From positions 62,001 through 126,000 of the forward strand of contig CAXIUP010000120.1 of assembly GCA_964035015.1 (NCBI GenBank): a stretch of DNA of 64,000 bases, read 5' to 3'. The position numbers were made by a program, and so were the translations under genes. How positions within the stretch are numbered: position 1 is the first letter of the stretch; every line of letters begins with the position of its first letter. Origin of the DNA: Corallium rubrum (Eukaryota; Cnidaria; Anthozoa; Scleralcyonacea; Coralliidae). Shown one piece after another: positions 13,015-42,741 of the stretch. The notes beneath the pieces are model-generated. The model was not told the origin of the DNA and did not search any database. It saw only the letters and a program-made list of their open reading frames with translations.

Positions 13015-13164
13015 CGATCATTAAAAGTAACAATTTTTCATTTTTTATAGCATCATCCAATGCAGAATTAATATTTTGGAAATTTGTTGCAGCAAATTTG
13101 TGAAGTGCTCTATCAACAGTAACACTACAGCAGCTGGTACCAAGAACTCTTTGGGTGTTTATAC

Positions 13165-14288: not shown

Positions 14289-14393
14289 TATCAACACGTA
14301 AGAGACAAAGTTACAAAACAGGAAACACCGTATTAACATATTCTGTTTGCAGACTATTTGTCTGCAGTCTGACAGTTACATTGGACAGTTACA
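14289..14393 (-). repeat. Truncated 3' LTR of the Gypsy element
   Basis: Reading on the minus strand from 14393, TGTAACTGTCC follows the polypurine tract and matches 32982-32880 for about 104 bp with two substitutions. Homology then stops abruptly near 14289, so roughly the last 185 bp of the LTR are missing. Confidence 0.8.
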
Positions 14394-14405
14394 CTCTTCC
14401 CCCAC
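14394..14405 (-). promoter_or_regulatory. Polypurine tract of the Gypsy element
   Basis: GTGGGGGAAGAG on the minus strand immediately before the LTR's TG, the expected plus-strand priming site. Confidence 0.75.
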
Positions 14406-14517
14406 TTAAGTTTTCGTCCCGAAAAACATATTACAAAAACATATTCAATACTATATATATGTGATTATTACATATATCAATCAGTCATTAAAAAAAAATA
14501 TATAGATACACACATAA

Positions 14518-15441
14518 CTAAGGAGTGTCATAAGAATAACGTACTGGAGGGCGTATGTTTTGCCGAAGTTGATAACGTGGTCTTACGGGGGCTTCGCCTC
14601 TAAGCCTATGGGGAGGTGGTGGTACGATGGGGTGTTGAGGCAAGCTGTGGACCACTGTGAAATCTTCTGACTCATACCCAGGAGAAACAATCCGCCCATT
14701 ATCCAACGGTATACAGCACAACTTAAGATTGTCGTGATGAACTACCATATCTTTCCCTTCGTTCGATCGCACACGGTACGTCACTCCCAGTCAACTCACT
14801 ACCTTATAAGGGCCGATCCACTTCCTACCAAACTTCCATTTCTTTGGGCGTTTTACCCAAGCTGTCTGACCCTCCACGTACGGTTTCCATTTCTGGTTAT
14901 GATGATGACGACGCGTGGTCGACCTCACCTCTCCTAAATGTTCTTTAGCGATCTGCCTGACATTCTGAAGGACCGTTCTAACTGTCTGTGCGTAATCAGT
15001 TTGGGTACCAGGATTTCCGATAGTCACAGCGAATTCCAATTCCAAAGGCATGCGAGGGAGCTTTCCGAATACTATTTCATATGGGCTAAACCCAGTAGAT
15101 TCGTGTTTGCTAGTGTTGTATGCGTAAACAACGGGGTCTAACCACACATCGTCGGCTCTGGTGGACACATAATTGGCAAGCATATCTTGGAGCGTGCGAT
15201 TCTGCCGTTCAACCTGGCCATCCCCACTAGGGTGGTAGGCTGTAGTGCGTGTTTTTGTAATTCCCATTATATCGCAAATCTCGTGCATAAGGGTGCTTTC
15301 GAAATTCGAACCTTGATCCGAATGGAGCACAACTGGGGGTCCGAAACGAGAAAACACTTTCGATATTAAAATGTTAGCGACCGTAGAAGCCTTTTGGTCT
15401 TTAGTCGGGAACGCTTCACACCACTTTGTAAAGTGGTCCAT
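14518..15441 (-). pseudogene. Gypsy integrase, catalytic core and C-terminal part
   Basis: Integrase strand-transfer core: the second Asp is in 'LHSDQGSNFES' and the Glu in 'GDGQVERQNRTLQ', followed by 'WIGPYKVVS', a GPY/F-type module. An in-frame TGA at 14791-14793 separates this from 'VTYRVRSNEGKD' and a Pro/Arg-rich tail that ends at 14518. The first catalytic Asp lies in the preceding ORF ('WALDYMGP'). A one-base deletion near 15440 joins the two frames. It would insert the element's cDNA if intact. Confidence 0.85.
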
Positions 15442-16022
15442 GACAACAAGTACATCTTGTTTCCTCTCGCGGTCTCCGAAACAGGTCCCATATAATCTAA
15501 TGCCCAGAAGGTGAAAGGTTCACCGACATCAATAGTTTTCATAGGCGCTTTGTCTGGGTTTGGCGGCGATTTACGGCGCTGGCAAGAGAGACAGTGTTGT
15601 ATGTGAAATTTAACCGATGCGCGCAGATTTGGCCAATAAAATCGTTCGCGAATTCTTTCTTCTGTTCTTGTTGAACCGAGATGACCACAGGATGGATTGT
15701 CATGCATACCTTTAAGTATTACCGGCACTATAGACTGCGGGATAAGGATTGCGTGATCAGGATGCGCGAAATGCTTATGACGAGAACGCACGAGGAGATC
15801 ATTGTGCATAAACAATCGATCGTAATTATACCAGAAATTGCGAAGAACTGGGTTATCTTTCCAATCTTTGAAATCGGGTCTCGGTTTATTTTGAAGTTTG
15901 AGTTCAATGATTTTTGAAATACATTCGCCTTGGCGTTGCGCTTCATGCAAATTAATAATCTGGTTAACCGTAACTGAATTAATATTGTTCGTAGAGACAG
16001 GTATGTTCTTAGGTGTTGACAT
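15366..16022 (-). pseudogene. Gypsy integrase, N-terminal zinc-binding region and first catalytic Asp
   Basis: HHCC zinc module: His in 'MHDNPSCGHLGS' and Cys pair in 'HCLSCQRRK', then 'FWALDYMGP' with the first catalytic Asp. The frame breaks near 15440, where coding continues in the frame of 14791-15441. The upstream junction to RNase H is also frameshifted near 16050. Confidence 0.85.
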
Positions 16023-16059
16023 TTGAAATGGTGGCGCCTCAGGGTTAAGTATCGAATAG

Positions 16060-16579
16060 TTGACGTGTTTTGCGGTGCGGACAAGGAATTACTAAACCAG
16101 TTAGCGATATTCCGAAATAAAAGTAACAACATGAACCCGTAGTGAAGCGGTATATTGAACAAGCGTTTCGCCTTCGTTTTCAATTCTCTGGCTGGTGTAA
16201 TCACACGGGTGGTTGCGCAGTCGGTCACACGGTCACTGTTTTTGTTCGGTAAACGAGATAAAGCGTCGGCATTGCAGTGGGATTTGCCCGCTCTATGTTG
16301 AACCGAAAATTCAAATTCCTGCAAATCCATCAGCCATCGCGCTACACGCCCTTTTGGCTCCATACTATTTAGCCAACGAAGAGCACTATGATCAGTGACA
16401 ATTGTGAACTTACGGCCTAGGAGGTAGAGGCGAAAGTGTTGTGTTCCGTAATGGATTGCCAAAGCTTCTTTCTCAGTGGTAGCATAGTTGCGTTCGCGAA
16501 GTGTAAGGCTCCGAGAACCGTATGCGACAACTCTTTCTACGCCATTGTCATCACGTTGGGAAAGAACTACGCCTAAGCC
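16060..16579 (-). pseudogene. Gypsy RNase H, 3' portion
   Basis: Contains 'YGSRSLTLRERNYATTEKE', 'TDHSALRWLNSM' and 'HRAGKSHCNADALSRLP', the typical end of a Gypsy RNase H. Its 5' portion, ending in 'TDASDVGLG', is 7 kb away at about 23650, on the other side of the foldback. Confidence 0.85.
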
Positions 16580-16588
16580 GGCTATCTT

Positions 16589-16798
16589 TAAAAGGGGGAA
16601 CGGGGAATGGGGGAACGGGGAATGGGGGAACGGGGAATGGGGGAATGGGGGAACGGGGAATGGGGGAATGGGGGAATGGGGGAACGGGGAATGGGGGAAT
16701 GGGGGAATGGGGGAATGGGGGAATGGGGGAATGGGGGAATGGGGGAACGGGGGAATGGGGGAACGGGGGAACGGGGGAATGGGGGGAATGGGGGAACG
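16589..16798 (+). repeat. G-rich minisatellite, left arm part 1
   Basis: Mixture of GGGGGAACGGGGAAT 15-mers and GGGGGAAT 8-mers with G runs on the plus strand. Short gaps between 4-5 base G runs make quadruplex formation likely. It is open in several frames (Gly/Asn/Glu/Trp repeats); these are not proteins. Confidence 0.9.
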
Positions 16799-16879
16799 CA
16801 ATCTCGTCCCCAGAGCCAAATATGCCCGGCCGCGCGGGCAAATCAAATGGCTCTGGGCCAATCCGTTTGAAACCCCACG

Positions 16880-18709
16880 AATCGTGGGGTTTTGGGGCGT
16901 GCGCAGTTGATTATTTTGGACCCAGACCCACGAAAACCTATCGCACGGCCATCAGAACTTTTGCAAAATATAGTGATATGTCGAGGCTGATTCTGGAGTT
17001 TAATTTCAACAAAATAGCAGTGGAAATGACGTTAGAAAGTAATCGTTGCTGTTTGGTATAGCGAGAGAATATTCCTTGTGTGAAATATTTGGAAAGGAAG
17101 CTGACAAATTCAAAAATAACCCCGTGTTTTGGTATGACTGTCCAAAAAGTATCAAATATTTATGATAGCTGTATTATTGAAACAGTTTTAATTTTGTATC
17201 AAGATTTATATGAACATGAGAATATCATATTATTTTTCGGATTTTTATTCGTAGGCAACTACAACGCAATTCGTGACAAAAGCTGGATATTTTAAAATGT
17301 ATTTTAGTCTGTATAATAAAACTTGTTTTTTCTTTGCCCTGCACTTATAATTTGTTGATTTGTAACATTTTATTATTAATTGTTACATCAGTACATGTTG
17401 TGTGTCGTCAAAATAATTGATTCAGTAACATTTGACGCTTATAAAACCAGGCTGTGTCAAAGTTTGAAAGAAAGTAAAAATACCAGTTGCTGAACTTTTA
17501 TACTAGAATGCACAACTAGAATGCACTTAATATGTAGTATAACTAGTATGGTCTTTTTTATGGTCTTTTTTTTATTGGCTTGAGTGTCATGGTAAACAAT
17601 CCTTATACTATGTATGTGTGTATGATAAACTAAGAAAGTATCCTTGTTGTGATTTTGTCTATAGTCTTGATGAGCAGACTTGATATAAATTATGATATTT
17701 CTTCATATGCATATACAATATAAATTTGATGTTGTCCTAACTATACATGTACATAATTTGCTTCTAAAGTATATAATTGTCTTCTGGCCTCTCAGATTTA
17801 CAGTGCCGTAGGAAGTACCAAAGGATTGAGAAGGTTGAACAAGGACTATAACACGTTTTCCAGTAAATTTTGATAATTTATAGGCTGCAAACCCCTCCCC
17901 CCCTGTAAGATAACTGCAAGTTTAAACTACTTGTCTAAAAAGTGTCATGCAGAAAGACATGACAATATTTAGAGTGACGACCTTGTTTTCACAATATTCC
18001 ACTCATGTAAGCTACATTATCAAGGGGTTATTCAAAATATATATTTTCCCAGATCAAAGGGTGTTGTTTTCTAGTAGTATCTATATAATTATATTGCACT
18101 TTTTCAGCATTTATAATACCAATGTATTTTTTGAAGACAATACATTTTATATTTTCAGTTGTCTTGTTGACAAAACTTTGAACTTAATAATTTATTTTTT
18201 ATTAGCACCTACATAAAGTAAACCAACATAACCTTGAATCCAGTTTCTGTATTAAATCTGGTAATTATACTAATTCCATCAGCAAAAGAGAAATTCAATC
18301 ATACAATTAACTTGTATTTTTCCTTAGGGTGTGGGGCATTTTCTGTCATTTTGTACAAAATATTGTCCCACATGGGATGGCATTTGTTAATTTTTGCAAG
18401 CTATTCAGAACTAACCTAAACCTATGTCATGGGGTGAGGGTGGATGGGTTTACTCTGACTAGTGCATAACCATTTCATATGCTATATATATATAAATGCT
18501 TTTAGTTTTATACCATTATTACATATTAGCATGATTTGCTGGGGTGTTGGACTCTTGGTGCTACATACAGCAGTTAAGTCTGCAACCTGCATTCGATTCC
18601 TGCACAATGGAGTTATTTGATTAAAAAAATCACTTTTGCCACTTCCTCCTGTAGTAACACTGGGCCAATGAGAATGGGCCCTTACTGGACCTCTGACAAC
18701 AACAGTTCA
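16880..18709. other. Interior of the 3.9 kb TIR element, no gene seen
   Basis: AT-rich, no ORF with a recognisable motif. A weak tRNA-like string near 18541-18600 was considered and not accepted. Confidence 0.5.
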
Positions 18710-18949
18710 GATATATACAGTGGTGTAAGCTTGTGCTAGGGTGCCCATGGTCCAAACTGGAGTGGGTGCTCCCAAGGCAGGGGGAGCTAGGTCCCCTTGA
18801 GAAGTCCAGGGGCAACACTGCCGTTGGGTGCCAGGGGGTGGAGCCCCCATGAAGCCCTGGCAATATGAGCCTTTTGGTAGTCATTTAGAGGCCAATTTTT
18901 AATGGGTTTCTTAAAAAGCACCTGTGTCCAGAAGCATAAATTATGAACA

Positions 18950-19064
18950 CAGGGCTCAAAATAATGTTACATGTTACACCGGTCATGGTGACTGGTCAGT
19001 TCCAATTGTGACTGGGCAAAGGTGATTTTTGACCAGTCAAATTTCATGATGCCCCCCCCCCCCC

Positions 19065-19098
<34 letters not shown>

Positions 19099-19503
19099 CA
19101 ACCCAACAAAAAACAAAAAAACAACAAAAAACCAAACAAACTGTAACACAACACAACACAACACAACACAACACAACACAACACAACACAACACAACACA
19201 ACACAACACAACACAACACAACACAAAAAAACATGTAAAGTATATTCTACACTATATATATATATAAGCTAGTACTGATATGAACGTTTGTCATAAAAAG
19301 GAAATGCATGCATAGTTCACTTCAATATATATCAGACATTATGAAACGGGTCTACAATCATTTTAAGTTCCTTCAAATGGAAGTAATAAAATTAATTGCA
19401 AGTAATATGACTGGTTAAAATAACTGGTGTTATACAAGTTTGACTGGTCACATTAAAAATTTGGGTGGTCATTGACCAGTACCGGCCATTATTTTGAGCC
19501 TTG
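18950..19503. mobile_element. Small TIR element nested in the hAT-like element
   Basis: CAGGGCTCAAAATAATG at 18950 is inverted at the right end (CATTATTTTGAGCCTTG ending at 19503, one mismatch). TGAACA is repeated directly on both sides (18944-18949 and 19504-19509). Inside are further ACTGGTCA inverted motifs, a C-run/A-run block and an AACAC array. No ORF. Probably another hAT-type MITE. Confidence 0.6.
19053..19227. repeat. C-run, A-run and (AACAC)n microsatellite
   Basis: About 14 C then about 30 A (19053-19097), an A/C-rich link, then AACAC pentamers at about 19146-19226. Apparent ORFs across it are low-complexity artefacts. Confidence 0.9.
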
Positions 19504-19748
19504 TGAACATGATGTGCTTTATTATACAGAAATCAAGAAGGCTGATTTCAAGGGAGCTTAGAGGGTGAAAAAACCCTGGGGACTCTGGTAACCTGGGCAT
19601 TTTAGCCTTTACAGGCTTTTTAGAGATGAATATTAAGGTTTCTAGTGTTTCCTTCAAATCAGATCTCAGGGTGCCCCCCCCCCCCTGAGTTATGATGCCT
19701 CGGCTTTTACGAGGTAGAATACATAGGAGTTACACCACTGGATATACG

Positions 19749-20680
19749 GTATAAACTGATAGAGTTATCCAGTATAAATAAGGTTAGTTTATTGTTGTCA
19801 GAACACAAACAAGTGTATTGGTTTAATCGAGGAAAATAATGGGTATATCTGTAGTATATACTAGTCTTAAATTGAAAACTGGTGTAAACCAGCAACTGAT
19901 GCTTACCACATTTGGATACAATACTTTAGACTAATTTATAGCTGCCAGTTGTATTGTAGAATGTGGATAGGAGTGTTTGATTCAAAATTTAATTAAACAA
20001 ATAATTTTGTAGTACAGCACTCATGGTCTGACAACCTCAACATGTCTGGCAATACAACCAGGAACATTAACTTACACAAATAAAAGTTACAAACACAGTA
20101 TCAACACTCATAAGACAATATATATATTTTTATATAAGGAGATATCTATGGGATATTTAGGAACATGTTGATCAGTTAATAATGTGCTCAGATAATTATT
20201 TTCAAGTTTGTATTCAATGATGCATTATTCAAACAGTCACGATTAATAATATATTTCTCCAATAATATTTCTTGTAGTCAAACCCAATGTCTAATATGAC
20301 GATATAGCATAAATATTTATTTTTTAACATACAAACACGGAAACTGTGAAATCTGAAAAAGACAACTCTCAATGATCACGAACCACGGCTACGATCGATG
20401 ATGATTCGATGAGTCTGTCGTAATACGTTCTCCCGTTTATAGTCCCGTGGAAGCTCAAATCAAGGATCCAAACATGTTACTAAGCCAAATACGTATATTC
20501 CTTGTCTCTTTGGAAAGAATCTCTCATTTTGTCAGGTTTAATTCTCATAAAGATGTTTTTATTTTGCTCCGATCCGCTCCTCTTGAAAATTCAACATGAG
20601 AACATGGGAGAATGAGCATGAAATTATCTGCGCAGCGCAGTAGGCGTCGAAGCGTTAAACCAATCAGAGGCAAGTTTCAA
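19749..20680. other. No gene recognised
   Basis: Right-hand interior of the 3.9 kb TIR element. AT-rich, no motif-bearing ORF. Confidence 0.5.
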
Positions 20681-20740
20681 ACGGCTTGTCCCAGAGCCAT
20701 TTGCTTTCCCGGGGGGGAGCTGGCTCTGGGGACGAGATTG

Positions 20741-20829
20741 GGGGGAACGGGGAATGGGGGAATGGGGGAATTGGGGAACGGGGAATCGGGGAATGGGGAA
20801 TGGGGGAATGGGGAATGGGGGAATCGGGT
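20741..20829 (+). repeat. G-rich minisatellite, left arm part 2
   Basis: Continuation of the array at 16589-16798 beyond the inserted TIR element, with G runs again on the plus strand. This places the guest inside the arm. Confidence 0.85.
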
Positions 20830-20877
20830 AGACAAAGACAAAGGAATAACCAATCTGTTTACGCATCCATACGTATA

Positions 20878-21023
20878 ATAAAAAGTAAAGTAAAGTAAAG
20901 TAAAGTAAAGTAAAGTAAAGTAAAGTAAAGTAAAGTAAAGTAAAGTAAAGTAAAGTAAAGTAAAGTAAAGTAAAGTAAAGTAAAGTAAAGTAAAGTAAAG
21001 TAAAGTAAAGTAAAGTAAAGTAA
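20878..21023. repeat. (TAAAG)n microsatellite
   Basis: About 29 nearly perfect TAAAG units. Confidence 0.95.
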
Positions 21024-22140
21024 AAGATATGTACGCTTGTTTCTGCTGTATAGTCTAGTCAATGTGCCAAACAGACCTTATGCACCAGTGAGTTACGTGC
21101 GCGGTTTTATATTTTCTTTGCGGTTTTTTTTCTTTACTTTTACGCACATTTCTTTACGTGGAAATACTATGATTCTGACCAAGGTATTCTTGACAATAGC
21201 TATCTATCTGAAATCTCACACCGGGTGACACGCGTTTTGCTCGGAATATTTTAAGATCACAAATGATTGCAATCAAATTTCATAATTTGATAAACGGCAT
21301 TGAATATTGTTATAAAACGAATCCGTTCATTCTGTTGTGGAAAACGAATTAAAAGTTTAAAACATTCAAGAATTGGCTTTGCCTATTATTCCTCTCGGAG
21401 TTGTGATTAAATCAGAAGGTATATAAAACAGACCTTGTCAAAAGCTGTCATCAGCAAACTAGACCTGCCGCGAAAATTGCGGGATGCCCGTAAGTCAAAA
21501 AATTGTGTAGACTAGGCACATTAAAATATTCTTGAGAGGTAGTTTGTGTTTATACAGTTTGACTATATATACTATTCTATATTATTTCTATTCTATTATT
21601 ACTTAAATTAAGGGTTAGATACAATTAGCCGAGGTAAATGTGTTTGCGGCGCAATCATGTTACTGAAGAAATCATTTTATCCAGCTGTTAACACTTCTTG
21701 ACTTACGTAAGTTAATAAATGCATGTGTTGGAAGCTCCTTAGCCGTCACTTAAATTTTGGGTTAGATACAAGTAGACTGTATAGCCGAGGTAAATGTATT
21801 TGCTGCACAATCATGCTACTGAAGTCTACAGTAAAGTAAAAAAGATACGTACGCTTGAGCATACATGTTTCTGCTGTAGTCTAGTCAATGACAATGTGCC
21901 AAACAGACCTTATGGAAAGATGGACCCTCAGCCACCAGAGAGTTACGTGCGTGGTTTTATATTTTCTTTGCGTTTCGCATTTCCTTTCAGACTCCATGAA
22001 GCTCATATGCTTGTTTAAACAGTCTTGTCTAGAACATCTTGACTCATCTGGTCTACATGGCCTCTAGCACACAGCAGAAACATTTACTGTAGGAAAGCTG
22101 TGTTATCATATAGATTAGGCCCGGCATAGGTTAAAACATG
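21024..22140 (+). repeat. Foldback interior with an internal direct duplication
   Basis: Segment 21023-21130 (TACGCTTG, GTCTAGTCAATG, CAAACAGACCTTATG, GAGTTACGTGCG) recurs diverged at 21840-21980. A second pair, 'GGGTTAGATACAA ... GCCGAGGTAAATG', occurs at 21610-21640 and 21760-21795. No protein recognised. Confidence 0.6.
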
Positions 22141-22195
22141 GACTGGACTATTTTTTGGACTATTTTTTGGACTATTTTTTGGACCATTTTTTGGG
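22141..22195 (+). repeat. Short tandem repeat of GGACTATTTTTT
   Basis: Four near-identical copies of a 13-14 bp unit (GGACTATTTTTTT-like, the last GGACCATTTTTT). Confidence 0.85.
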
Positions 22196-22961
22196 TCAAT
22201 TTCTACATTGTTATTAGGCTGTAGTATAGTCTAATAACAATAACCAAAGCTGCAGCAGTTTTCACTTGTAAAGAGAAGATGACTCCAGCCCGGAGGCTAA
22301 CTAATCTTGTTAGTAAACCAAACAAAGCATGTAGCTAGTAAGAAGATATATTTCTTATTAGAGATATCTCGAAATGCATGCCCTGCGAGCGGCTCACCTA
22401 TAGGAAATGCATGTATGTATTCAAGATCGGTATGATTTGATCGCGCCATTGTGTCGGCTAGCCTAATAGCTAGGAACGACGAGAAATGTCATTCGTTATA
22501 TGTAAATATGCTACACAATACAGCACCACAATGCCACAAACTCACGGGAGTTAGAACGCCTGTATGCAACTCATACGCAATAAAATCTATTTTCATCGCC
22601 ATCCTTACCGTTTTATGTCGAACCCTGTGTAGTGGCTAAATATATATACCCCTTCGGCGACGTCAGTTGGATAAAATGCCATAATTTAACGAAACAATGA
22701 TATTTTTATTTACATTGTATATGTATATATAGGATTACAAATATTTTATATATGGTTCCCAGTTCAGTTTTGTGTGAACTGCCTGTGAACTGAAAGGAGG
22801 CGAGGACGTAACTGTGCAGAACCCTGGTTCATGGTTGTAAAAATCTTATAGCTTTTCACTCTTGCATAAAAAGTTTGGGTGAATTGAAGAAAATAAATAC
22901 ACATGTTAAAATGCTGAACAACCGTACCAAAATCAGAAATCGACGAGTCGCGCTAAAATAT
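22196..22961. other. Foldback interior, no gene recognised
   Basis: AT-rich sequence leading to the right minisatellite arm. Nothing with a known motif. Confidence 0.5.
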
Positions 22962-23638
22962 CCCATTCCCCGTTCCCCCATTCCCCGTTCCCCCATTCCC
23001 CGTTCCCCCATTCCCCCATTCCCGGTTCCCCCGTTCCCCGTTCCCCGTTCCTCCATTCCTCGTTCCCCCATTCCCCGTTCCCCCATTCCTCCATTCCCCG
23101 TTCCCCCATTCCCCGTTCCCCCATTCCCCGTTCCCCCATTCCCCGTTCCCCCATTCCCCGTTCTCCCATTCCCCCATTCCCCGTTCCCCCATTCCCCCAT
23201 TCCCCGTTCCCCGTTCCCCCATTCCCCGTTCCCCCATTCCCCGTTCCCCGTTCCCCCATTCCCCGTTCCCCCATTCCCCGTTCCCCCATTCCCCGTTCCC
23301 CCATTCCCCGTTCCCCCATTCCCCGTTCCCCCATTCCCCGTTCCCCCATTCCCCCATTCCCGGTTCCCCCGTTCCCCGTTCCCCCATTCCTCGTTCCCCC
23401 ATTCCCCGTTCCCCCATTCCTCCATTCCCCGTTCCCCTATTCCCCGTTCCCCCATTCCCCGTTCCCCCATTCCCCCATTCCCCGTTCCCCCATTCCCCCA
23501 TTCCCCGTTCCCCCATTCCCCGTTCCCCCATTCCCCGTTCCCCCATTCCCCGTTCCCCCATTCCCCCATTCCCCCATTCCCCGTTCCCCCATTCCCCGTT
23601 CCCCCATTCCCCGTTCCCCCATTCCCCGTTCCCCCTTT
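22962..23638 (-). repeat. G-rich minisatellite, right arm of the foldback
   Basis: About 45 units of CCCCATTCCCCGTTC on the plus strand (G-rich on minus), with occasional CCTCC, CGGTT and single-unit CCCCATT variants. Inverted relative to the left arm arrays. The Gypsy ORF reads into it as a Gly/Glu/Asn/Trp repeat, which is spurious. Confidence 0.95.
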
Positions 23639-23659
23639 TAAAGATAGCCCGCCTAAGCC

Positions 23660-24345
23660 GACATCTGACGCATCGGTATATAGCGTAAACTCTCGATCAA
23701 ATTTCGAATAAGCTAATAATGGTGCCGAGCAGAGCTGACGTTTAAGTTCCGTAAAAGAATTCTCACAATCATCAGACCAGTGAAAAGGTGCCTTCGATTC
23801 GGCTTTTGTTGTGAGTTTTGTCAGGGGGGCGGCGATAGTTGCAAAATTGGTAATAAAGCGCCGATAATAGCTGGCTAGACCTAAAAAACTCCGCAGTTCT
23901 TTCAGACATGTCGGCGCTGCGATTTCCTTTGCGGCCGCGATCTTAACTGGATCTGGACTTATACCCTTCTTAGAGACCACATGGCCAAGAAACGCCACTT
24001 TCGTTTCCGTAAATTGGCACTTCTCCAATTTTACGCGCAAGTTATGTTGTCGAAATCTGTTGGGTATTGTTCTCAATCTATGGTTATGCTCGTGGAGAGT
24101 GCGTCCAAAACAAATAACATCGTCCAAATAACATAAACATATTTCGAACGTTGACCCTGCCAGGACGATCTCCATGGCCCGTTGAAAAGTGGCCGGCGCA
24201 GTTTTTAAGCCGAAACTCATGCGGTTAAACTCAAATAGACTCGAAGTCGTCACAAAAGCAGTTTTCGACCGGTCGCGTGGGTCAACGGATATTTGCCAGT
24301 ACCCGCTCCGAAGATCTAAAGTTGAGAAATATGTTGCCTCTCCTA
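23660..24345 (-). pseudogene. Gypsy reverse transcriptase palm/thumb and start of RNase H
   Basis: Motifs: 'FNRMSFGLKTAPATFQRAM', the catalytic 'YLDD' in 'LCYLDDVICFG', 'VAFLGHVVSKKGI', and the first RNase H Asp in 'YTDASDVGLG' just before the foldback. The frame joins the upstream ORF across an extra ~4 bases (CTAG/CCTAG) near 24335. Confidence 0.9.
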
Positions 24346-25677
24346 GGCTAGCGAATCTAGAATGTCCGCAATATTCGGAATTGGGTGTGAATCATTAAGC
24401 GTAACCTGGTTTAATTTCCGATAGTCCACACAAAACTGAAGTTCCCCTGAACGTTTTTTGACTAAGACAATCGGACTTGACCAGGGGCTTGTGCTAGGAC
24501 GAATAATACCTTGCGCTAACATCTCCTTGATCTGCCTGTCGGCTTCGTCTCGAAAGGCGTAAGGCAAACGACGTGGGCGATGTTTAATCAGAGTAGAATT
24601 ACCTGTATTAATGGTATGTGTTACCACGTTTGTATGGCCTACCGTCGCTTCGAACACATCTTCAAATTCGGATAAAACCGTGAGAACACTGTCTTTCGCG
24701 GAGCGATCTAACTTAGGGTTGATAACATCTTCGAATCTGGTGTCATTACCTGCCGTATTATCTATTTTCACTCCGCAACTAGCATTCCTGACTTTGCTGT
24801 GAGACTCAACAAGTGGGCTAAATGCCGCAACTTTAGTACCAAATTTTAGCTCGGCTAGTTCACTCAAAGCGTTCATGACCCTAAGGAAACCATTTCTACC
24901 GTTGGGACGGACTACGGCGTGAGCCACGTGCATCCCATTACCCAAATCATGATCACCTAATGGTGCTATCATGCCTACTTCTGCCTTCGCTGCCTTCATT
25001 AACCTATCTTCGATGATCATTTCAGTTCTATCAGGCACAACTACATTTTGGTCTAAAACCACAGCAATGTCGGCTTTCATACGCGATTGGATGAGGACGG
25101 TTGAATCCCCCTCACACGTTTCAGGTATTTCAGTGGTCTGGAAAAGAACGCTGCTTGCCTCAGTTACCTCAGATACCGTTCCACCTTTGGGAAGGGAATA
25201 ACAACTCACGTTGGTCCGCCCATGGAGCCCTGTTAAGAAATAGGAGCTACAACCTTTGTCAAAGTTTCCCTTTAAACTCAACCTATTCTCTATAAGGAAG
25301 TCCCACCCTAACACGCAGTCGTAACTGATGTTATTGCTAACGAGAAAACGCCCCTTGTACGTTACCTTACTTTTAGGAAACTTTACATTTGCAGTCAGAT
25401 GACCAAGAATACTTAAACTACCCCCTGTGATAGAAACGCAACGTTCTGCTACAGAGGTATCAATTAAGTAATTATCAAAATCAATAACAGAATGAACCTT
25501 ATCGCTGATGAATGTTCTCATTGAACCAGTATCAATAAGTGCATGCACCTCTACGTTATTTATGAAACACTTAATAAAAGGTTGTGTGGGTAAAGAAAAA
25601 TCTATCTTATTACTATTACTACAATTATCAAAACTTACGCAAGGGCGACCTGCGATCCCACTTATCGAGGCGCCCAC
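24343..25677 (-). pseudogene. Gypsy aspartic protease and N-terminal reverse transcriptase
   Basis: Protease active site 'ALIDTGSMRTFI' about 50 residues in, then a long linker, then RT fingers ('LPYAFRDEADRQIKEML', 'SPIVLVKKRSGELQFCVDYR'). Overlaps gag by about 50 bp at 25628-25677 in another frame, as expected for frameshifted gag-pol. Ends prematurely at the lesion near 24343. Confidence 0.9.
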
Positions 25678-26534
25678 TGGGAGTTAAATGGTTTCCACAG
25701 TCTTTGGCAAAGTGTCCGTATCCCTGGCATTCATGACATCGGTTAGTATTTGTTCTGGAGTCAGTCGACTTGGTTTGACCTTTGAACCAGCAATCTTTGG
25801 CTATGTGTCCCATCTTGTTGCAGACAAAGCAGGTTCTTCTGTTCCGTTTCGCACTCGACCCCGCTTTGCTTCCTGGACTGAATGAAGAGGTATCCCGTTC
25901 GCTTGTCGATAGCTTCTCCTCCATATTCTTTTGCCTTACGGCGAGATCCGACGCCATTGCGATCAAGTTGGCCATTTCTTCACTCTTTTTACTTGCTACA
26001 CCAGCGGTTGTCACCTCGTTGTTCTGGTCCGTGTAGTCTTGAATGGCTCGATAGCGTTGGACAAACGAAACCATCTTTGGGAGATCTGGCGCAGGGTCAC
26101 TTTCTAACAATTTTATTTTGACGCTCTTTGGCAAACCTTTCATAAACTGCCTCGTCAACAGCGCTGTTTTTGCCCTCTCGTCGATATCTGGGTCTGCTTT
26201 CAGAAGGATTTGCTCTAACTCCCACTTATAAACGGAAGGGTCCTCCCCTGGTTTCAACGATCTCGTTTCGAACTCGGCGTAGTAGATTTCTCTGCTTGCT
26301 GGCGGGCACATCGCCTCCCTCAGAGCTTTTGCTGCGTTGGCATACGACTCGATCGCGGCTTTCTCAGTCAAGGGCGTAAAAATGACTTGCTGCTTGTCCC
26401 CGAAGGAAAGCTGGCAACTTCTTGATTTTGGCATCTGCGTTCCACCCATTTGCCTCCGCACAAGCGTCGAATTCGCGAAGCCAAGTTACTATATCACCCC
26501 GTTCGAATTTACCAGGCAGAATTGCTGTAGCCAT
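25628..26534 (-). pseudogene. Gypsy gag with two CCHC zinc knuckles
   Basis: ATG at 26534 ('MATAILPGKFERGD') follows the primer binding site by about 17 bp. Capsid-like helical region, then two zinc knuckles ('CFVCNKMGHIAKDC' and 'CHECQGYGHFAKDC') that bind genomic RNA. A one-base insertion near 26363 splits the frame after 'SHFYAL'. Confidence 0.85.
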
Positions 26535-26550
26535 TGTCAAGGATTCGATG

Positions 26551-26569
26551 GATCCCACCGCTGCCACCA
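26551..26569 (-). promoter_or_regulatory. Gypsy primer binding site, complementary to tRNA-Leu
   Basis: TGGTGGCAGCGGTGGGATC on the minus strand lies 4 bases after the 5' LTR end. It is complementary to the 3' end of a eukaryotic tRNA-Leu including CCA (from memory of tRNA-Leu AAG/TAG isoacceptors). Confidence 0.7.
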
Positions 26570-26573
26570 AATT

Positions 26574-26688
26574 TGTAACGCGCCGAGCTAGCGTTAAAGA
26601 CAGACGCACACACTTTGAGATCCAGTTGTAATCTGACTTTATTATTATTCCTAAGCTCTTTTTATCCTATCTTATTATTTATCATATT
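26574..26688 (-). repeat. Gypsy 5' LTR, 3' part
   Basis: Ends GCGTTACA (26574) before the primer binding site. Interrupted at 26688 by the BEL/Pao element; the rest continues at 32810. Confidence 0.8.
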
Positions 26689-26977
26689 TGTTTTGATATT
26701 TGTTAACTTTTTTAGTTTATTACGCATTAATTATGCAAACTAGCGCTAATTATTTGATACGTCAGTTATTTATAGCTTGGAATCCTGGGATATGTAACAT
26801 GAGAACGTTGTTGATTCATCTTTTTTGTTAACTCGAAGGACACTATACAGGACGTATTGAGAACACCTATTTTGACTTCTTTTTTCATTTGTTTTTCGTT
26901 ATTTTTTAAGTAGTACAGAATAAAACAATTAGAGTCTTTAGTGTCAACATTCCATTTGTTGCGAAGAGTCCACAACA
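26689..26977 (+). repeat. BEL/Pao 5' LTR
   Basis: Starts TGTTTTGATATT and ends AGTCCACAACA. Contains an AATAAA poly-A signal near 26922. Appears identical to the 3' LTR. Confidence 0.95.
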
Positions 26978-27134
26978 GTCAAAATAGGTTGACAGTAACA
27001 GAGCGAAACAGGACTTTATTTGGGCGAATATTTGCCAAGAAATCAAGTGAGATACTCCAGACACGTTCGACAACTGTGGCACGCAAATAAACAAAAGGAA
27101 CGTAGAGTTAAGGAAGAATCAGTGCAATACCACC

Positions 27135-30100
27135 ATGACGAAGATAGAAGAAATGGTAAGAAAGAGAAATTCGGCGAAGAAGAAGTTCTTCGACGCAGTC
27201 AAGAGTTTTACGATTGTACTGAAAGCCAACCCGGAAGTATGTCGGCTAGAAGAAGCGTTCGACGAAGTTTCAGTCAAATACAAGGCAATAAGGGATATAC
27301 ACGATGAAATAACGGAGTTAATGATCGAAGCTGAAGTAGAGGAGGGAGATTTCGTCAGTCATGATGGATTTATCGAGACAGTAATGGCAGAATATGGCGG
27401 TCTACTAACAGAATTGGAAAATTACCGAAAGGCGAGCAAGATTGTAAACAACACGGTACCAAAACCGACTGGGAAATCGACGGACAATGAGAAAGATCGA
27501 CCGAGGTCTAGTCTGGAGCGAATTAAAGTACCGCAATTTTCTGGCAACATCAAAAACTACCGGACATGGAAGAGAATATTCAAGGATACGATGAAGAAAA
27601 ACCATGAAGATGAAGGTAACCAACTTGCGAGATTAATCGAAGCTATACAACCACCGTTGATGATGGAAATAGCATGTTTTACTACCACTGAGGCGATTTG
27701 GAAGTTTCTAGACAAGCTACTTGGTGATGACAACGAGCTAATCAGAATCTTGATGAACGATATCAAGACCATGAGGCCTTTGAGGTCTAAAGATGCGAAT
27801 TCAATTCGAAGCTTCGTGGCAACAATACGTAGATTTATACTCAGAATGGAAGACGTAGGGGCCAGTGACGAAACCCAGAGTAAGTATGTCTTCGCTGATA
27901 TCTTGGCAAAGTTAATATTGGAAGAGCAAAGGGCGTACAGGCGAAGTATGATTGATACCAAGAAGAACGAAAACCTTGAAACTTTGCTTGAGTATTTGGA
28001 ACAAGAGGCAAAGCTAATGGCCACCAGTAGTCAATTATCAGACCAGAAATCACTTCACAAGATGGGTGTTTATCCTGTAGACGTGGACGGTGCAGGCAGA
28101 GACACCCCAGGGTCAGGTTGTTGTCTGGGTTGCTCTCAACTTCATGGTTTGGCCATTTGTCCTGTGTTTAAAAAGATGAAACTGAAAGAACGATGGGATG
28201 TTGTAATTCAGTCCAAAAGATGCAAGAAATGCTTAAAAACTGGTCACAGGCATCAGCAGTGTTCAAGAATGGCTTGCAATATAAACAACTGTGGACGACC
28301 ACACCACTACTGGCTACATAAAGACAAGACAGAGCATGAGACCAAATCCCCCCCAGTATTGGAACATAAGGAACCACCACTCAATTCTAATAAGCCAGGA
28401 TCGAGCGAAGAAGAGAAAACTAATCAAGTGGGTACCATCTCGACAAATTCTACTGGTAGTGCAAATGTTCCAATCCAGAAAGTCAAAGTTCAGAGCAGCA
28501 GTGGTGTACCAGTTGAAGCTCTTGCCATGATCGATAGTGGTTCTAATCAGAGCTTAATTCGGAAAGAATTCGCAGAAAGACTTGGGCTGGTTGGTGAAGC
28601 CAAAAGGATGAAGATGTACGTAGCAGGAGGAGGAGTCAGGATTGAGAACTCGGTGGAAGTTGAATTAAGGATCTCTCCATGCTTTGATGATGACATTGTT
28701 TTCAACGTGAAAGCCTACTCGGTCAGGAAACCATGCCAAGGAGCTAGAACTGTACAGAAGGAAGCTGTAACCCGATTTCCACACTTAGCTCACATTGTAG
28801 AAGATCTTCATCTTAGTGGGGGACCAGTAGATGTCTTGTTAGGAACTGATCTGCCAGAAGCTCATCGTGATTTCAAAGTTTTGACAGGTAACCCTGGGGA
28901 ACCAATCGCTAAGAAGAATATCTTTGGTTGGGCAGCTTTGGGCCATATTAATGAGGAGAATGCTCCTGGAATTAATGCCATAGAAGCAATTGATGAAGAG
29001 TCAACGAGTTACGACATAAAGAAATTGCTCTTCCAAGACCAAGTTGGTGTGAAACCTACACGGTACTGTGTGTGTTCTGGGAAAGAAATGCAAGAGTGTG
29101 AGTTTATTCGACATGTTCAAGAAACAACTACAGTATTGGAAGATGGTCGTATTCAAGTCCGAATGCCTTGGAAGCCAGGACATCCTAATTTGCCAAACAA
29201 TTGGTCCATGGCCTACAAGAGAATGGTGTCTAAGGAAAACCAACTAGCAAAGAAAGGGAAATTGAAAGAATTCAACAACGAGATAAAAGCCTTGGTTGAC
29301 AGAGAGGTAGTTGTCAAGCTCCAACCTGCTGCAGTAAACCCAAGTGAACCAGCTTGGTATCTTCCAATTGGGGAAGTCGAAACGCCTGACAAGTCTACAA
29401 AGGTTAGATTGGTCTTTGACTCAGCTGCCAAAGCGAAAGGACTTTCACTCAATGATGCTCTTGAAAAGGGACCGTGCTTCATGAATTCCCTCTTTGATGT
29501 TTTGGTTGGATGGAGAGAAGAAGAAATTGCATTTGCAGGAGATATCGCAAAAATGTTCAATCAAGTCGCTGTCCACCCAGATGACCAGAAGTATCACAGA
29601 TTTATTTGGAGGGACGGAGACTCTAACAGAGAGCCAGATGTGTATCAATGGGTACGTCTTAGCTTTGGCGATAAGCCAGCTCCCGACCTTGCTATCAGCG
29701 CCATAAATCTTCTGGCCAACAAAGCCAAAGAGGAAGCACCAGAAGCAGCAAGAGTCTTGAAAGATCATACCTACGTAGATGATATCGCAGGGTCAGAAGC
29801 AACACCAGAGAAGGCCAAAGAAGTGACTGCTGGTATCGATGCTATTCTGGGAAAAGGCAAGTTTGCGATCAAAGCGTGGCACAGCAATAATCCTGAGGTT
29901 GATCAAGTACCAGGTGAAGACTGTGTGAACTTACTTGGCCATCAATGGGATAAGAAAGCTGATTGTATTTCCTTGAAAAAGAATGTCGTGAAAGCAGATC
30001 TTGATCAGTGTACAAAACGAAAGGTCCTTGGTTTGGTTTCGCAATTGTGGGATCCATTGGGACTAATGGCACCGACTACAATCCAATTTCGCATCCACCT

Positions 30101-32435
30101 CCAGAATTTGTGGGTAGTAGGCTACCAGTGGGATGAGTTGCTACCGAAGGAGGAGAAGACCAAGTGGCTAAAGATTCTCGAGATGATGAACACTCTTCTC
30201 CATACCCGCCTAGAAAGATGCCTGAAACCTAAAGGCTCGGTTGGATCTCCACAACTCCATGGATTTTCAGATGGAGGAGAGAAGGGGTATGGTAGTGCAA
30301 TATTCCTTCGATGGCAATTAGAAAATGGTGAGTTTTCTTCTAGCTTTGTGGCATCGAAAGCTCTGGTCGCACCACTGAAGAAGAAGACCATACCAAGGCT
30401 TGAATTGATGGGATGTGTACTGCTGAGTCGACTAGCTACTGAGACGGAGCGAGCCTTAAAGATCAAGTTTGATAAGAAATTCTGGTGCGACTCCACCACA
30501 GCCTTATCATGGATAAGAAGTTCTTCAGCGGAGTTTAAGCCATTCGTTAGTGTCCGAGTTGCGGAGATACAGGAAAGTCACCCACAAGACGTCTGGCAGT
30601 ACATCACCTCTAAGGAAAACCCAGCTGATGCACTCACTCGAGGGATAACGCCTGAGAACCTCCAAGTATGGCATCAGGGTCCATCATTTATTCGACGACC
30701 AGAAAGCGAATGGCCAGATTTTGAAAGTGCAAGGGCGAAGGAAATACCCGAATTGCAATTTGACACAGAGAAGAGAAACAAAACCACGTCAAAGATTCAA
30801 AAGAAGTTGCAACCTACACCGGGAAATACCGACGAAGAAGTACCGAAACCAAAAGTAGTTATGGCTGGGGATCTCGATAACAGAGAGACGGAAACCACTA
30901 CGGTCACCTTTGGAAAGATCCAAGATGAAGAAAGAGCAGTAGCTGGACTGATTGTCGAAACCGGTGAAGAAACAAAAGACGTCTTGGACAGAATTCTGGC
31001 TAGATCATCCAGTTTTCGTAAGGCGAGAAGAGTGACAGCTTTGACCGCGAGAGCCATCGGGAACATTCTTCAAAAGAAGGGTATTAAGGGACCGATATCC
31101 GTTGCAGAAATTGAAGACGCAGAAAGACGACTAATCAAGATGGTGCAGACAGGAATGGAAGTGAATCACAAGCAAGTACAAAATTTGATCCCATTTCTCG
31201 GTGACGACGGACTCTGGAAAGCCAGAGGCAGGCTGGAAAATGTTCGCGAATTGCCCCAAACGATCCGAAATCCGATCATTCTACCGAAAAAGCACCCATT
31301 GGTCGAGATGCTGCTCGAACACTACCATCAGGAAATGGCACACTGTGGATACAAGCGATTGATGGCAGAAATCAGGCAGAAATACTGGATAATCGGGCTC
31401 CAAGATACGGCCAGATCTATCGTCAGCAGCTGTTTTCCTTGCAGACTGAGTCGAAAGAAAGCGTGTGAACAACGCATGGGACAGCTGCCAAACTATCGAG
31501 TCGAAGCCAGTCATCCAGCGTTTGCTAACACCGCCTTAGATTTTTTTGGTCCATTCGAGGTGAAAGTTGCAAGAAGGACGATCAAAGAAGCTTGGTGCTG
31601 CATCTTCACTTGTATGACGAGTAGAGCCATCCACCTAGAGCTCTGTACCGACAAGTCTACGGACACGTTCTTGATGGCCTTTAGGAGATTCGCATGCCTT
31701 AGAGGACATCCTAAACTAGTGTGGTCAGACCGAGGAACCAACTTTGTGGGAGCTCAAGAATACCTACGAGAGATGGTATGCAGCTGGAATACAACGAAGG
31801 TGAAATCCAACCTTGCAGAACAAGGCACCACGTTTAAATGGGTTTGGAATGTTCCGAAGGCCAGTCACATGAATGGGGTCGTGGAGTCACTAATTAAGTC
31901 AGTCCGAAGAGCGTTGGAGAGCACATGCAAGATGGCAGCGTACACGGAAGAGCAATGGAGGACATTCCTATCTGAAGTTACGTATTTGGTTAACTCGAGA
32001 CCTTTGTATCCTGCGTCCGGCAACATCTGGGAGGAACCTCCAATCACCCCGAACGATCTGATCATAGGACCGAATTTTGGTGTGGCACAATCAGAACCAG
32101 AAGAAGTGGTCAACCCAAGGCAACTTACCAGAAGTGTCCAGAAAAGAGTGTATCAATTCTGGCAATGTTGGATGAAATATTTTGCTCCTAGCCTCTTGGT
32201 CAGGACAAAGTGGCACAAGAAGAGAGAGAATCTCGAAGTTGGAGACCTGGTGCTACAAGTAGACGTCAATCACAAAAGAGCCGAATGGAAGATGGCGCTC
32301 GTGGACGAAGTATTCCCTGGCAGTGATGGTCTTGTTCGAAAGGTGAAGATCAAGACACCAAAGGGATCTTATGAAAGACCAATAACAAAGTTATGTTTGA
32401 TTGCAACACGACGAGAACTCGAAAGCGGACAGTAA
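27135..32435 (+). CDS. BEL/Pao Gag-Pol polyprotein, intact
   Basis: 1766 aa with domains in the expected BEL order. Gag-like N-terminus with the 'PQFSGNIKNYRTWKRIF' signature (about 135); Cys/His knuckles (about 330-400, e.g. 'CKKCLKTGHRHQQC'); aspartic protease 'AMIDSGSNQSL' (about 467); RT with 'LVFDSAAK' and catalytic 'YVDD' (about 879); RNase H ('HGFSDGG', 'WCDSTTALSWI', 'NPADALTRG'). Integrase: zinc module 'HQEMAHCGYKR ... CFPC', then Asp in 'ALDFFGP' (about 1467), Asp in 'WSDRGTNFVGA' (about 1531) and Glu in 'GVVESLIKS' (about 1582). A C-terminal DUF5641-like domain ends it ('LEVGDLVL', 'PITKLCLI'). ATG at 27135 has an ACC context. It copies element RNA into cDNA and integrates it. No lesion seen. 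Confidence 0.95.
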   Translation: MTKIEEMVRKRNSAKKKFFDAVKSFTIVLKANPEVCRLEEAFDEVSVKYKAIRDIHDEITELMIEAEVEEGDFVSHDGFIETVMAEYGGLLTELENYRKASKIVNNTVPKPTGKSTDNEKDRPRSSLERIKVPQFSGNIKNYRTWKRIFKDTMKKNHEDEGNQLARLIEAIQPPLMMEIACFTTTEAIWKFLDKLLGDDNELIRILMNDIKTMRPLRSKDANSIRSFVATIRRFILRMEDVGASDETQSKYVFADILAKLILEEQRAYRRSMIDTKKNENLETLLEYLEQEAKLMATSSQLSDQKSLHKMGVYPVDVDGAGRDTPGSGCCLGCSQLHGLAICPVFKKMKLKERWDVVIQSKRCKKCLKTGHRHQQCSRMACNINNCGRPHHYWLHKDKTEHETKSPPVLEHKEPPLNSNKPGSSEEEKTNQVGTISTNSTGSANVPIQKVKVQSSSGVPVEALAMIDSGSNQSLIRKEFAERLGLVGEAKRMKMYVAGGGVRIENSVEVELRISPCFDDDIVFNVKAYSVRKPCQGARTVQKEAVTRFPHLAHIVEDLHLSGGPVDVLLGTDLPEAHRDFKVLTGNPGEPIAKKNIFGWAALGHINEENAPGINAIEAIDEESTSYDIKKLLFQDQVGVKPTRYCVCSGKEMQECEFIRHVQETTTVLEDGRIQVRMPWKPGHPNLPNNWSMAYKRMVSKENQLAKKGKLKEFNNEIKALVDREVVVKLQPAAVNPSEPAWYLPIGEVETPDKSTKVRLVFDSAAKAKGLSLNDALEKGPCFMNSLFDVLVGWREEEIAFAGDIAKMFNQVAVHPDDQKYHRFIWRDGDSNREPDVYQWVRLSFGDKPAPDLAISAINLLANKAKEEAPEAARVLKDHTYVDDIAGSEATPEKAKEVTAGIDAILGKGKFAIKAWHSNNPEVDQVPGEDCVNLLGHQWDKKADCISLKKNVVKADLDQCTKRKVLGLVSQLWDPLGLMAPTTIQFRIHLQNLWVVGYQWDELLPKEEKTKWLKILEMMNTLLHTRLERCLKPKGSVGSPQLHGFSDGGEKGYGSAIFLRWQLENGEFSSSFVASKALVAPLKKKTIPRLELMGCVLLSRLATETERALKIKFDKKFWCDSTTALSWIRSSSAEFKPFVSVRVAEIQESHPQDVWQYITSKENPADALTRGITPENLQVWHQGPSFIRRPESEWPDFESARAKEIPELQFDTEKRNKTTSKIQKKLQPTPGNTDEEVPKPKVVMAGDLDNRETETTTVTFGKIQDEERAVAGLIVETGEETKDVLDRILARSSSFRKARRVTALTARAIGNILQKKGIKGPISVAEIEDAERRLIKMVQTGMEVNHKQVQNLIPFLGDDGLWKARGRLENVRELPQTIRNPIILPKKHPLVEMLLEHYHQEMAHCGYKRLMAEIRQKYWIIGLQDTARSIVSSCFPCRLSRKKACEQRMGQLPNYRVEASHPAFANTALDFFGPFEVKVARRTIKEAWCCIFTCMTSRAIHLELCTDKSTDTFLMAFRRFACLRGHPKLVWSDRGTNFVGAQEYLREMVCSWNTTKVKSNLAEQGTTFKWVWNVPKASHMNGVVESLIKSVRRALESTCKMAAYTEEQWRTFLSEVTYLVNSRPLYPASGNIWEEPPITPNDLIIGPNFGVAQSEPEEVVNPRQLTRSVQKRVYQFWQCWMKYFAPSLLVRTKWHKKRENLEVGDLVLQVDVNHKRAEWKMALVDEVFPGSDGLVRKVKIKTPKGSYERPITKLCLIATRRELESGQ

Positions 32436-32500
32436 ACTCTGCAATAGTTGAAAGACCGAGACATTGAGTGTCGTTGCTCAAACTCCAGTCGGATTTTTCC

Positions 32501-32515
32501 GCACTGGGGGAGGAG
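32501..32515 (+). promoter_or_regulatory. BEL/Pao polypurine tract
   Basis: GCACTGGGGGAGGAG directly before the 3' LTR. Confidence 0.8.
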
Positions 32516-32804
32516 TGTTTTGATATTTGTTAACTTTTTTAGTTTATTACGCATTAATTATGCAAACTAGCGCTAATTATTTGATACGTCAGTTATTTAT
32601 AGCTTGGAATCCTGGGATATGTAACATGAGAACGTTGTTGATTCATCTTTTTTGTTAACTCGAAGGACACTATACAGGACGTATTGAGAACACCTATTTT
32701 GACTTCTTTTTTCATTTGTTTTTCGTTATTTTTTAAGTAGTACAGAATAAAACAATTAGAGTCTTTAGTGTCAACATTCCATTTGTTGCGAAGAGTCCAC
32801 AACA
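32516..32804 (+). repeat. BEL/Pao 3' LTR
   Basis: 289 bp, appears identical to 26689-26977. Confidence 0.95.
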
Positions 32805-32809
32805 ATATT

Positions 32810-32982
32810 ACATACTTTCATTTCCTACGGTCATCAAACTATCACAGTTTATAGGATTAAAATGTTCCAATTAGAGTTATCAACGCGTAAGAGACAAAGT
32901 TACAAAACAGGAAACACCGTATTAACATATTCTATTTGCAGACTATTTGTCTGCAGTCTGACAGTTACATTGGACAGTTACA
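32810..32982 (-). repeat. Gypsy 5' LTR, 5' part
   Basis: Minus strand starts TGTAACTGTCCAATG at 32982 and matches the truncated 3' LTR at 14393-14289 for about 104 bp. Joined with 26574-26688 it makes a ~288-bp LTR. Confidence 0.8.
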
Positions 32983-33196: not shown

Positions 33197-33984
33197 CATT
33201 CTCGTCCCCAGAGCCTCTCCCGTGCTGGCGCGCGGAAAAGGCTCTGGGGGAATCCATAATCATCGCGATCTGATTGGTTGTTCAAATTCAAAGGCCTATA
33301 TATAACGGAGCTTAGTGAATGTTTATAAATAAACAGTATTTGAGACACGAAATCTGACAACGAAGCACAATTCTAATATAGTTCTAACCCGAACAATTTA
33401 ATCGAACGTTTTTCAAAGCATTCCCCTTATATAATTAAATCAAACACAGAAGACAGACAAAAATTTTAAACCGATAGGCGATAGACGATAGACAGCACAT
33501 TGCAGGATGTTCGTGCATGGTACATATTAAGAATCTCATTGAAATATACAAGTCATATATAAACGAACGGTGCAAAATATTAAAGAGAACTACCTTCACT
33601 AAAAGAAGCCGTAAATACGAAGAAATTCCGACACGGCTCTATTGGCTATTGCCAAGCTCTGAAGTGAACTCGTAAATTTTAATGCATTTTGCCCCACCGA
33701 GTAAACGCGGCGATGATCCACACTCGACAAGGACCTTCTTCGAACGGAATCTATCACAATCAGAATTGTTCCAAAGTCAAACGAGTCAATACGAGACAGA
33801 ATCGAAAACGAAAGGAAAATTATATTCCATACAACTGTCGATGATCTCGTGTCCAACTCCCAAACCGCGAACTTAAACGCATGCGCTTTAGAAAGAACAC
33901 CAAAGAATCTTGGTGTTCCGGTTTTGGATTCTCCCAGAGACTTTTCCGCGCGCCAGCACGGGAGAGGCTCTGGGGACGAGATTG
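33197..33984. mobile_element. Short relative of the CAATCTCG-TIR element (788 bp)
   Basis: Ends CATTCTCGTCCCCAGAGCC (33197) and GGCTCTGGGGACGAGATTG (33984). Inverted similarity extends about 58 bp with about 2-3 differences, and each end can itself form a hairpin (CCAGAGCC with GGCTCTGG). The 670-bp interior has no recognisable ORF. I found no matching target duplication. Shares its TIR with 16799-20740. Confidence 0.75.
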
Positions 33985-38215: not shown

Positions 38216-38379
38216 GTGAGTAACATGTATTTAATATTTTCTATGGTATTGTTTAAATTGGCTTAATTTGGACAATTATTATGACTTAACAGCTAACAGA
38301 TTGACAACAGATATTTTCTTATTTTTTTAAAATTATAGTATTTAATTTTTTTTTTACTTCAATTATTATTATCTTGAAG
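38216..38379 (+). other. Intron of the Helitron gene (164 bp)
   Basis: Donor GTGAGTAAC at 38216 and acceptor ATCTTGAAG ending at 38379, with a T-rich tract at 38320-38357. Splicing keeps frame ('QLVK' then 'YVDWLVTTV'). Confidence 0.7.
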
Positions 38380-42627: not shown

Positions 42628-42657
<30 letters not shown>

Positions 42658-42741
42658 GTTTTGTTTTGTTTTGTTTTGTTTTGTTTTGTTTTGTTTTGTT
42701 TTGTTTTGTTTTGTTTTGTTTTGTTTTGTTTTGTTTTGTTT
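42628..42741. repeat. (TTTTG)n microsatellite
   Basis: About 23 perfect TTTTG units followed by two TTTTA units. Confidence 0.95.

What the first reader, a model, noticed from the sequence alone, without database searches (positions are those of the whole stretch)
14289..32982. Five-deep nest of mobile elements inside one Gypsy retrotransposon
Breakpoints and target duplications line up: Gypsy holds a G-rich foldback (16580-23649), which holds a CAATCTCG-TIR element (16799-20740), which holds a hAT-like element (18718-19740), which holds a small TIR element (18950-19503). A separate BEL/Pao insertion lies in the Gypsy 5' LTR. Four of the five junctions have visible direct repeats. This gives an unusually complete relative chronology in under 19 kb.
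Basis: seen in the sequence. Interest (0 to 1): 0.8.

Follow-up and report, generated by a model that had tools for sequence, protein, structure and literature searches.

The report
Ready-made transposon nest inside a retrotransposon
Five mobile elements do sit one inside another here, but the inner three arrived as a single ready-made package that is found at many other places in the same (probably cnidarian) genome, so the nest records fewer local events than it seems to.

Summary
The anatomy is confirmed almost to the base. A minus-strand Gypsy holds a G-rich foldback (16580-23649; 10-bp TSD; it splits RNase H). The foldback holds a CAATCTCG-TIR element (16799-20740; 9-bp TSD), which holds a hAT-like element (18718-19740), which holds a small TIR element (18950-19503). 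A BEL/Pao element (26689-32804; LTRs 289/289 identical; TSD ATATT) interrupts the Gypsy 5' LTR. The Gypsy 3' LTR is only a 105-bp remnant.

The chronology must be redrawn. The CAATCTCG element, with the two inner elements already inside, is a repeat family. In 20 of 20 other copies fetched, the hAT left junction is the same; 15 of 17 copies with both ends (window included) have perfect, different 9-bp TSDs. In a search with the outer element alone, 19 of 20 copies at >=99% identity and at least 8 of 20 at 92-95% have the insert downstream. So the three inner levels were built once and landed here together. Four other foldback copies have an uninterrupted left arm. The insertions inferred within this Gypsy are three: foldback, prefabricated composite, BEL. 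Nested transposons and foldbacks are known kinds; interest is moderate.

The parts
14289..32982 (-). Gypsy LTR retrotransposon (outermost level), with several frame breaks
   Evidence: Pfam: RVT_1, RT_RNaseH_2, RT_RNaseH, Integrase_H2C2 and rve, protease hits below the curated cut-off; pieces of the frame are in different reading frames
14289..14393 (-). Remnant (105 bp) of the Gypsy 3' LTR
   Evidence: 2 differences in 105 from 32878-32982; similarity stops at 14289
26574..32982 (-). Gypsy 5' LTR (288 bp), split by BEL: 26574-26688 and 32810-32982
   Evidence: TGTAAC...GTTACA ends read; boundary next to a presumed primer-binding site is a reading by eye
16580..23649 (.). G-rich foldback element in Gypsy RNase H
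   Evidence: Matching ends and 10-bp TSD 16570-16579 / 23650-23659; family of related loci
16591..16798 (+). Foldback left arm, first part (GGGGGAAT/GGGGGAAC array)
   Evidence: 26 G-run units; continues at 20741-20829 beyond the insert (12 units)
22961..23640 (-). Foldback right arm (reverse complement array)
   Evidence: 85 G-run units on the minus strand; TRF
16799..20740 (+). CAATCTCG-TIR element carrying the two inner elements; member of a repeat family
   Evidence: TSD GGGGGAACG 16790-16798 / 20741-20749; 20 fetched copies; 40 scored matches to its body
18718..19740 (.). hAT-like element
   Evidence: CAGTGGTG...CACCACTG ends, flanks 6 of 8; same left junction in 20 of 20 fetched copies
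18950..19503 (.). Small TIR element in the hAT-like element
   Evidence: TIR CAGGGCTCAAAATAATG, 6-bp flank repeat TGAACA
26689..32804 (+). BEL/Pao LTR retrotransposon
   Evidence: Identical LTRs 26689-26977 and 32516-32804, TSD ATATT; open frame 27051-32435; Peptidase_A17, DUF1759, DUF5641, Integrase_H2C2

Best explanation
A Gypsy element was hit in RNase H by a foldback transposon with G-rich tandem arms (10-bp TSD). The left arm of that foldback was then hit by one copy of a 3.9-kb CAATCTCG-TIR element (9-bp TSD). That element already carried a hAT-like element, itself carrying a small TIR element: the composite had formed once in an ancestor and spread in the genome as a unit, presumably cut and pasted in trans by a transposase that acts on the outermost CAATCTCG ends. 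Separately a BEL/Pao element entered the Gypsy 5' LTR. Shown: boundaries, TSDs, identical internal junctions in other copies, their separate insertion sites, uninterrupted foldback arms elsewhere. Inferred: movement in trans, absence of coding capacity in the composite, and relative ages.
For: Same hAT left junction in 20 of 20 fetched copies, right junction in 19 of 20, small-element left in 20 of 20 and right in 18 of 20 as aligned. Matches of >=80 bp in those 20 loci stay within 16789-20747 of the 16000-24200 searched. 15 of 17 copies with both ends have perfect 9-bp TSDs, all different. With the outer element as query, 19 of 20 copies at >=99% and 8 of 20 at 92-95% pair with a scored hAT hit downstream, 24 of these 27 at 1168-1240 bp, two at 952 and 987, one at 3684. 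Empty-site query for the hAT: no contiguous match among 40 scored of 1102 candidates. Substitutions from the majority average 0.41, 0.44, 0.68 and 0.48% in outer left, hAT arms, small element, outer right of 16 copies. Foldback arm uninterrupted in L032 and L040 and joined straight to core sequence in L034 and L035. RNase H halves abut in the profile.
Against: The 20 fetched copies were picked by a hAT query, so they had to hold the hAT. 2 of 17 copies (L014, L026) have no TSD, 4 of 20 fetched lack a findable end. L015 and L017 share their left flank, so not every copy is an independent insertion. Pairwise distances agree only loosely between segments (r 0.21 to 0.71). No Gypsy copy with an empty foldback site was seen, because that search did not complete.
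Confidence: 0.9

Rival explanations
1. Five successive insertions at this locus: each element jumped into the previous one here.
For: Physical nesting and flank repeats at each junction.
Against: The two innermost junctions are the same, base for base, in copies at other sites with their own TSDs.
Confidence: 0.03
2. The foldback together with the composite moved as a unit, so that even the composite-in-foldback step did not happen here.
For: Only part of the foldback family was read (loci of about 3 kb around 19 matches).
Against: No exact CAATCTCG end in 7 of 7 foldback loci checked (L030-L035, L040); left arm uninterrupted in four copies.
Confidence: 0.04
3. An assembly join through the G-rich arrays put unrelated pieces side by side.
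For: The arrays are low-complexity and the arms are near-identical inverted copies; no reads could be checked.
Against: 10-bp and 9-bp TSDs match across 7.1 and 3.9 kb, and RNase H is continuous across the foldback.
Confidence: 0.03

Closest known systems
Tm1 Mutator/Foldback family of root-knot nematodes (PMC3169594; abstract and passages seen)
   Same: Composite terminal inverted repeats with varying numbers of a short (about 14 bp) repeat; TSDs of 8-10 bp, most often 9; a second inverted-repeat element nested inside one copy.
   Different: Here the arm unit is G-rich, 7-8 bp and 15 bp; TSD is 10 bp (5 copies); no transposase-coding copy was found, so a Mutator link is untested.
Tetris foldback of Drosophila virilis (PMC4079207; abstract seen)
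   Same: Apparently non-autonomous foldback with tandem repeats inside its terminal inverted repeats.
   Different: Tetris repeats are about 220 bp; here the arm repeats are minisatellite-like. A 10-kb copy on C1 does also contain longer internal repeats (repeated peptides in its frames), not analysed further.
Nested MITEs such as DcSto1 of carrot (PMC3695323; passages seen)
   Same: Small TIR elements inserted inside other TIR elements, with their own TSDs.
   Different: Here the nest is a fixed part of a family at many sites; the passages seen describe single nested copies. Whether co-amplified nests are in print elsewhere was searched only.

Membership tests
Foldback (FB/Tm1-like) element | Long inverted terminal repeats made of short tandem repeats | tested here: met
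   Arms with 26+12 and 85 G-run units in inverted orientation
Foldback (FB/Tm1-like) element | TSD of 8-10 bp on both sides | tested here: met
   5 copies with both ends held: three 10 of 10, two 9 of 10
Mutator superfamily (for the foldback or the CAATCTCG element) | MULE transposase in an autonomous relative | tested here: inconclusive
   One 9,986-bp foldback copy has no stop-to-stop frame over 108 aa between its arms (introns not excluded); for the CAATCTCG element no transposase was searched
Mutator superfamily (CAATCTCG element) | TSD of about 9 bp (recalled) | tested here: met
   15 of 17 copies with perfect 9-bp TSD; not specific to Mutator
hAT | 8-bp TSD and CAGNG-type TIR (recalled) | tested here: inconclusive
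   TIR CAGTGGTG fits; flanks agree in 6 of 8, 7 of 8 in L016 and L022; no transposase seen
hAT (small TIR element) | 8-bp TSD (recalled) | tested here: not met
   Only a 6-bp repeat TGAACA in register; superfamily left open
Ty3/Gypsy | RT and RNase H upstream of integrase, between LTRs | tested here: met
   RVT_1, RT_RNaseH_2, RT_RNaseH and Integrase_H2C2, rve in that order on the minus strand; one LTR split, the other a remnant
BEL/Pao | Pao-type peptidase with RT and integrase parts between identical-type LTRs, TSD of 4-6 bp (recalled) | tested here: met
   Peptidase_A17 112 bits, RVT_1 29.4 bits against a cut-off of 29.6, Integrase_H2C2, DUF1759, DUF5641; TSD ATATT

The most novel reading that the evidence does not exclude
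Gaining the hAT plus small-TIR insert marks, or even helped, the expansion of the CAATCTCG lineage: no hAT-free copy was seen in the searches made, so the nested form may be the only successful form of this element.
Probability: 0.12. Interest if true: 0.5.

Novelty: new member of a known kind. Interest (0 to 1): 0.35.

Why it matters
It is a clear example in which depth of nesting overstates the number of local events: inner junctions must be looked up in other copies before a nest is read as a chronology. It also describes a foldback family with G-rich tandem arms and 10-bp TSDs, with several copies for comparison, and a composite DNA transposon with many recent copies (about 0.4-0.7% substitutions from the majority) for study of how a nested element keeps moving.

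Tried and rejected
Missing part of the Gypsy 3' LTR: looked for in the window and 5 kb upstream, not found; whether it was deleted or displaced further is open. Transposase in the 10-kb foldback copy: no frame over 108 aa between the arms. Rfam: 0 matches in the window at gathering scores. Literature: (foldback, coral, transposon) listed 3 papers, which looked unrelated from the listing and were not opened. Free copies of the hAT-like and small elements: not established; 10 of 40 hAT hits are neither paired with a scored outer copy nor fetched, and the small-element search did not complete. Years: not given, no substitution rate was at hand.

Full report
Setting. The window is part of contig C136 of a 474-Mb genome in 312 contigs. 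It is probably cnidarian: of 43 protein relatives of one window ORF (10303-13017), four carry organism names, from Oculina (2), Acropora and Rhopilema; the best-scoring relatives are unnamed.

Observation. The nest is real. The Gypsy element lies on the minus strand. Its 5' LTR runs from 32982 (TGTAAC) to 26574 (GTTACA) and is split by a BEL/Pao element with 289 of 289 identical LTR bases, a 5-bp ATATT duplication and one long open frame. Without BEL and the repeated TSD the LTR is 288 bp. The left (3') LTR keeps 105 bp (14289-14393) with 2 differences from the right copy; its remainder is neither in the window nor in the 5 kb upstream. The foldback 16580-23649 has GGCTATCTTTAAAAGGGGG at both ends and a perfect 10-bp duplication. 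The two Gypsy flanks, scanned apart, match RT_RNaseH_2 at profile positions 1-39 and 41-100 of 100, and a 60+60-bp join reads through. The three arm segments hold 26, 12 and 85 G-run units.

Chronology, first test. The hAT-like element was searched in the genome (40 of 95 candidates scored) and 20 of the 39 hits other than the window were fetched with flanks. The hAT left junction has the same CAATCTCG-element flank in 20 of 20; the right junction aligns in 19 of 20, the small-element left junction in 20 of 20 and right in 18 of 20. Matches of at least 80 bp to window 16000-24200 stay within 16789-20747, so these loci share the CAATCTCG element and not the foldback or Gypsy. Of 17 copies with both ends (window plus 16 of 20; both ends not found in L011, L013, L015, L024), 15 have perfect 9-bp TSDs, all different; L014 and L026 do not. 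L015 and L017 share a left flank, so some copies may be duplicates of one insertion. These results show the composite inserted as a unit at many sites.

Chronology, second test. Because that set was picked by a hAT query, the outer element was searched alone with 16900-17500 (40 of 69 candidates scored; 20 at >=99% identity, 20 at 92-95%). Nineteen of the first 20 and 8 of the second 20 pair with a scored hAT hit downstream on the same strand: 24 of the 27 at 1168-1240 bp, two at 952 and 987 bp, one at 3684 bp. For the one unpaired copy at >=99% (C12), hits to the two hAT flanks lie about 19 kb apart, which would fit a later insertion; this was not read. A query of the joined hAT flanks gave 40 scored matches of 1102 candidates, each to one flank only; a close empty site should have outscored them, but candidates not scored cannot be excluded.

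Divergence. In 16 copies (window included), substitutions from the majority average 0.41% (outer left), 0.44% (hAT arms), 0.68% (small element, repeat runs left out) and 0.48% (outer right); the window copy has 0.10, 0.85, 0.82 and 0.50%. Identity counts gaps, so 92-95% there overstates substitutions: two of those lower-identity copies (L022, L027) are in the set, whose largest outer-left value is 1.22%. Pairwise distances correlate only loosely between segments (r 0.21-0.71), as expected with few differences but also compatible with exchange between copies. The imperfect hAT flank repeat is shared by most copies, which suggests the insert had aged before the family spread; this is inference.

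Foldback family. The core query gave 19 matches from 17 candidates. In L032 and L040 the left arm runs uninterrupted (267 and 212 bp) into the core; in L034 and L035 the arm joins core sequence directly, at 20958 and 20963. No exact CAATCTCG end was found in 7 of 7 foldback loci checked. So the composite entered this foldback copy locally. One copy on C1 is 9,986 bp long with no stop-to-stop frame over 108 aa between its arms. Of the copies for which both ends were held, 5 were compared: TSDs of 10 bp, three perfect (window, C22, L044) and two with 9 of 10 (C1, L040).

Order of events. Elsewhere: small TIR element into hAT-like element, hAT-like into CAATCTCG element, then spread of the composite. 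Here: Gypsy, then foldback into Gypsy, then composite into foldback. BEL entered the Gypsy LTR at a point that nesting does not order against the last two; identical LTRs make it young.

Mechanism. A cut-and-paste transposase recognises terminal repeats, so an element with insertions in its middle can still move if its outer ends are intact (established knowledge of TIR transposons). The TSDs fit movement by the outermost CAATCTCG ends. No transposase for it was identified.

Comparison. Foldback arms of tandem repeats with 8-10 bp TSDs are known from Tm1 (PMC3169594; abstract and passages) and tandem-repeat TIRs from Tetris (PMC4079207; abstract). Nested small TIR elements are known from carrot DcSto (PMC3695323; passages). 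The finding is a new member of known kinds.

Verdict. Anatomy confirmed, chronology partly wrong; three of the five levels are one prefabricated unit.

Noticed in passing
35814-41140 (+): Helitron-like element: Helitron_like_N, DUF6570 and PIF1 helicase domains in two frames.
   Followed up: no
47294-57471: LINE-like stretches: RVT_1 at 47297-48184 (-), RVT_1 with endonuclease domains at 50564-53167 and 54313-57468 (+), plus repeated DNA shared between 48109-49934 and 57821-59904.
   Followed up: no
848-1762, 19145-19226, 20882-21024, 42629-42751: Several long pentamer arrays with different units (TATTC, CTACC, TATTT, AACAC, AAAGT, TTTTG).
   Followed up: no
33200-33981: Inverted 60-bp ends at 33200-33259 and 33922-33981 (95%) resembling the CAATCTCG-type TIR, probably another element of that kind beside the Gypsy.
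   Followed up: no
L016, L028 (and perhaps L009): The 3.9-kb composite itself sits inside another element with similar ends: outer pairs with direct flank repeats in L016 (444-5100) and L028 (1029-6967).
   Followed up: partly
10300-13017 (-): 905-aa open frame with 43 protein relatives and no Pfam match, apart from the nest.
   Followed up: partly
3468-6495: Inverted repeat of about 860 bp arms at 91% (3468-4323 and 5629-6495).
   Followed up: no
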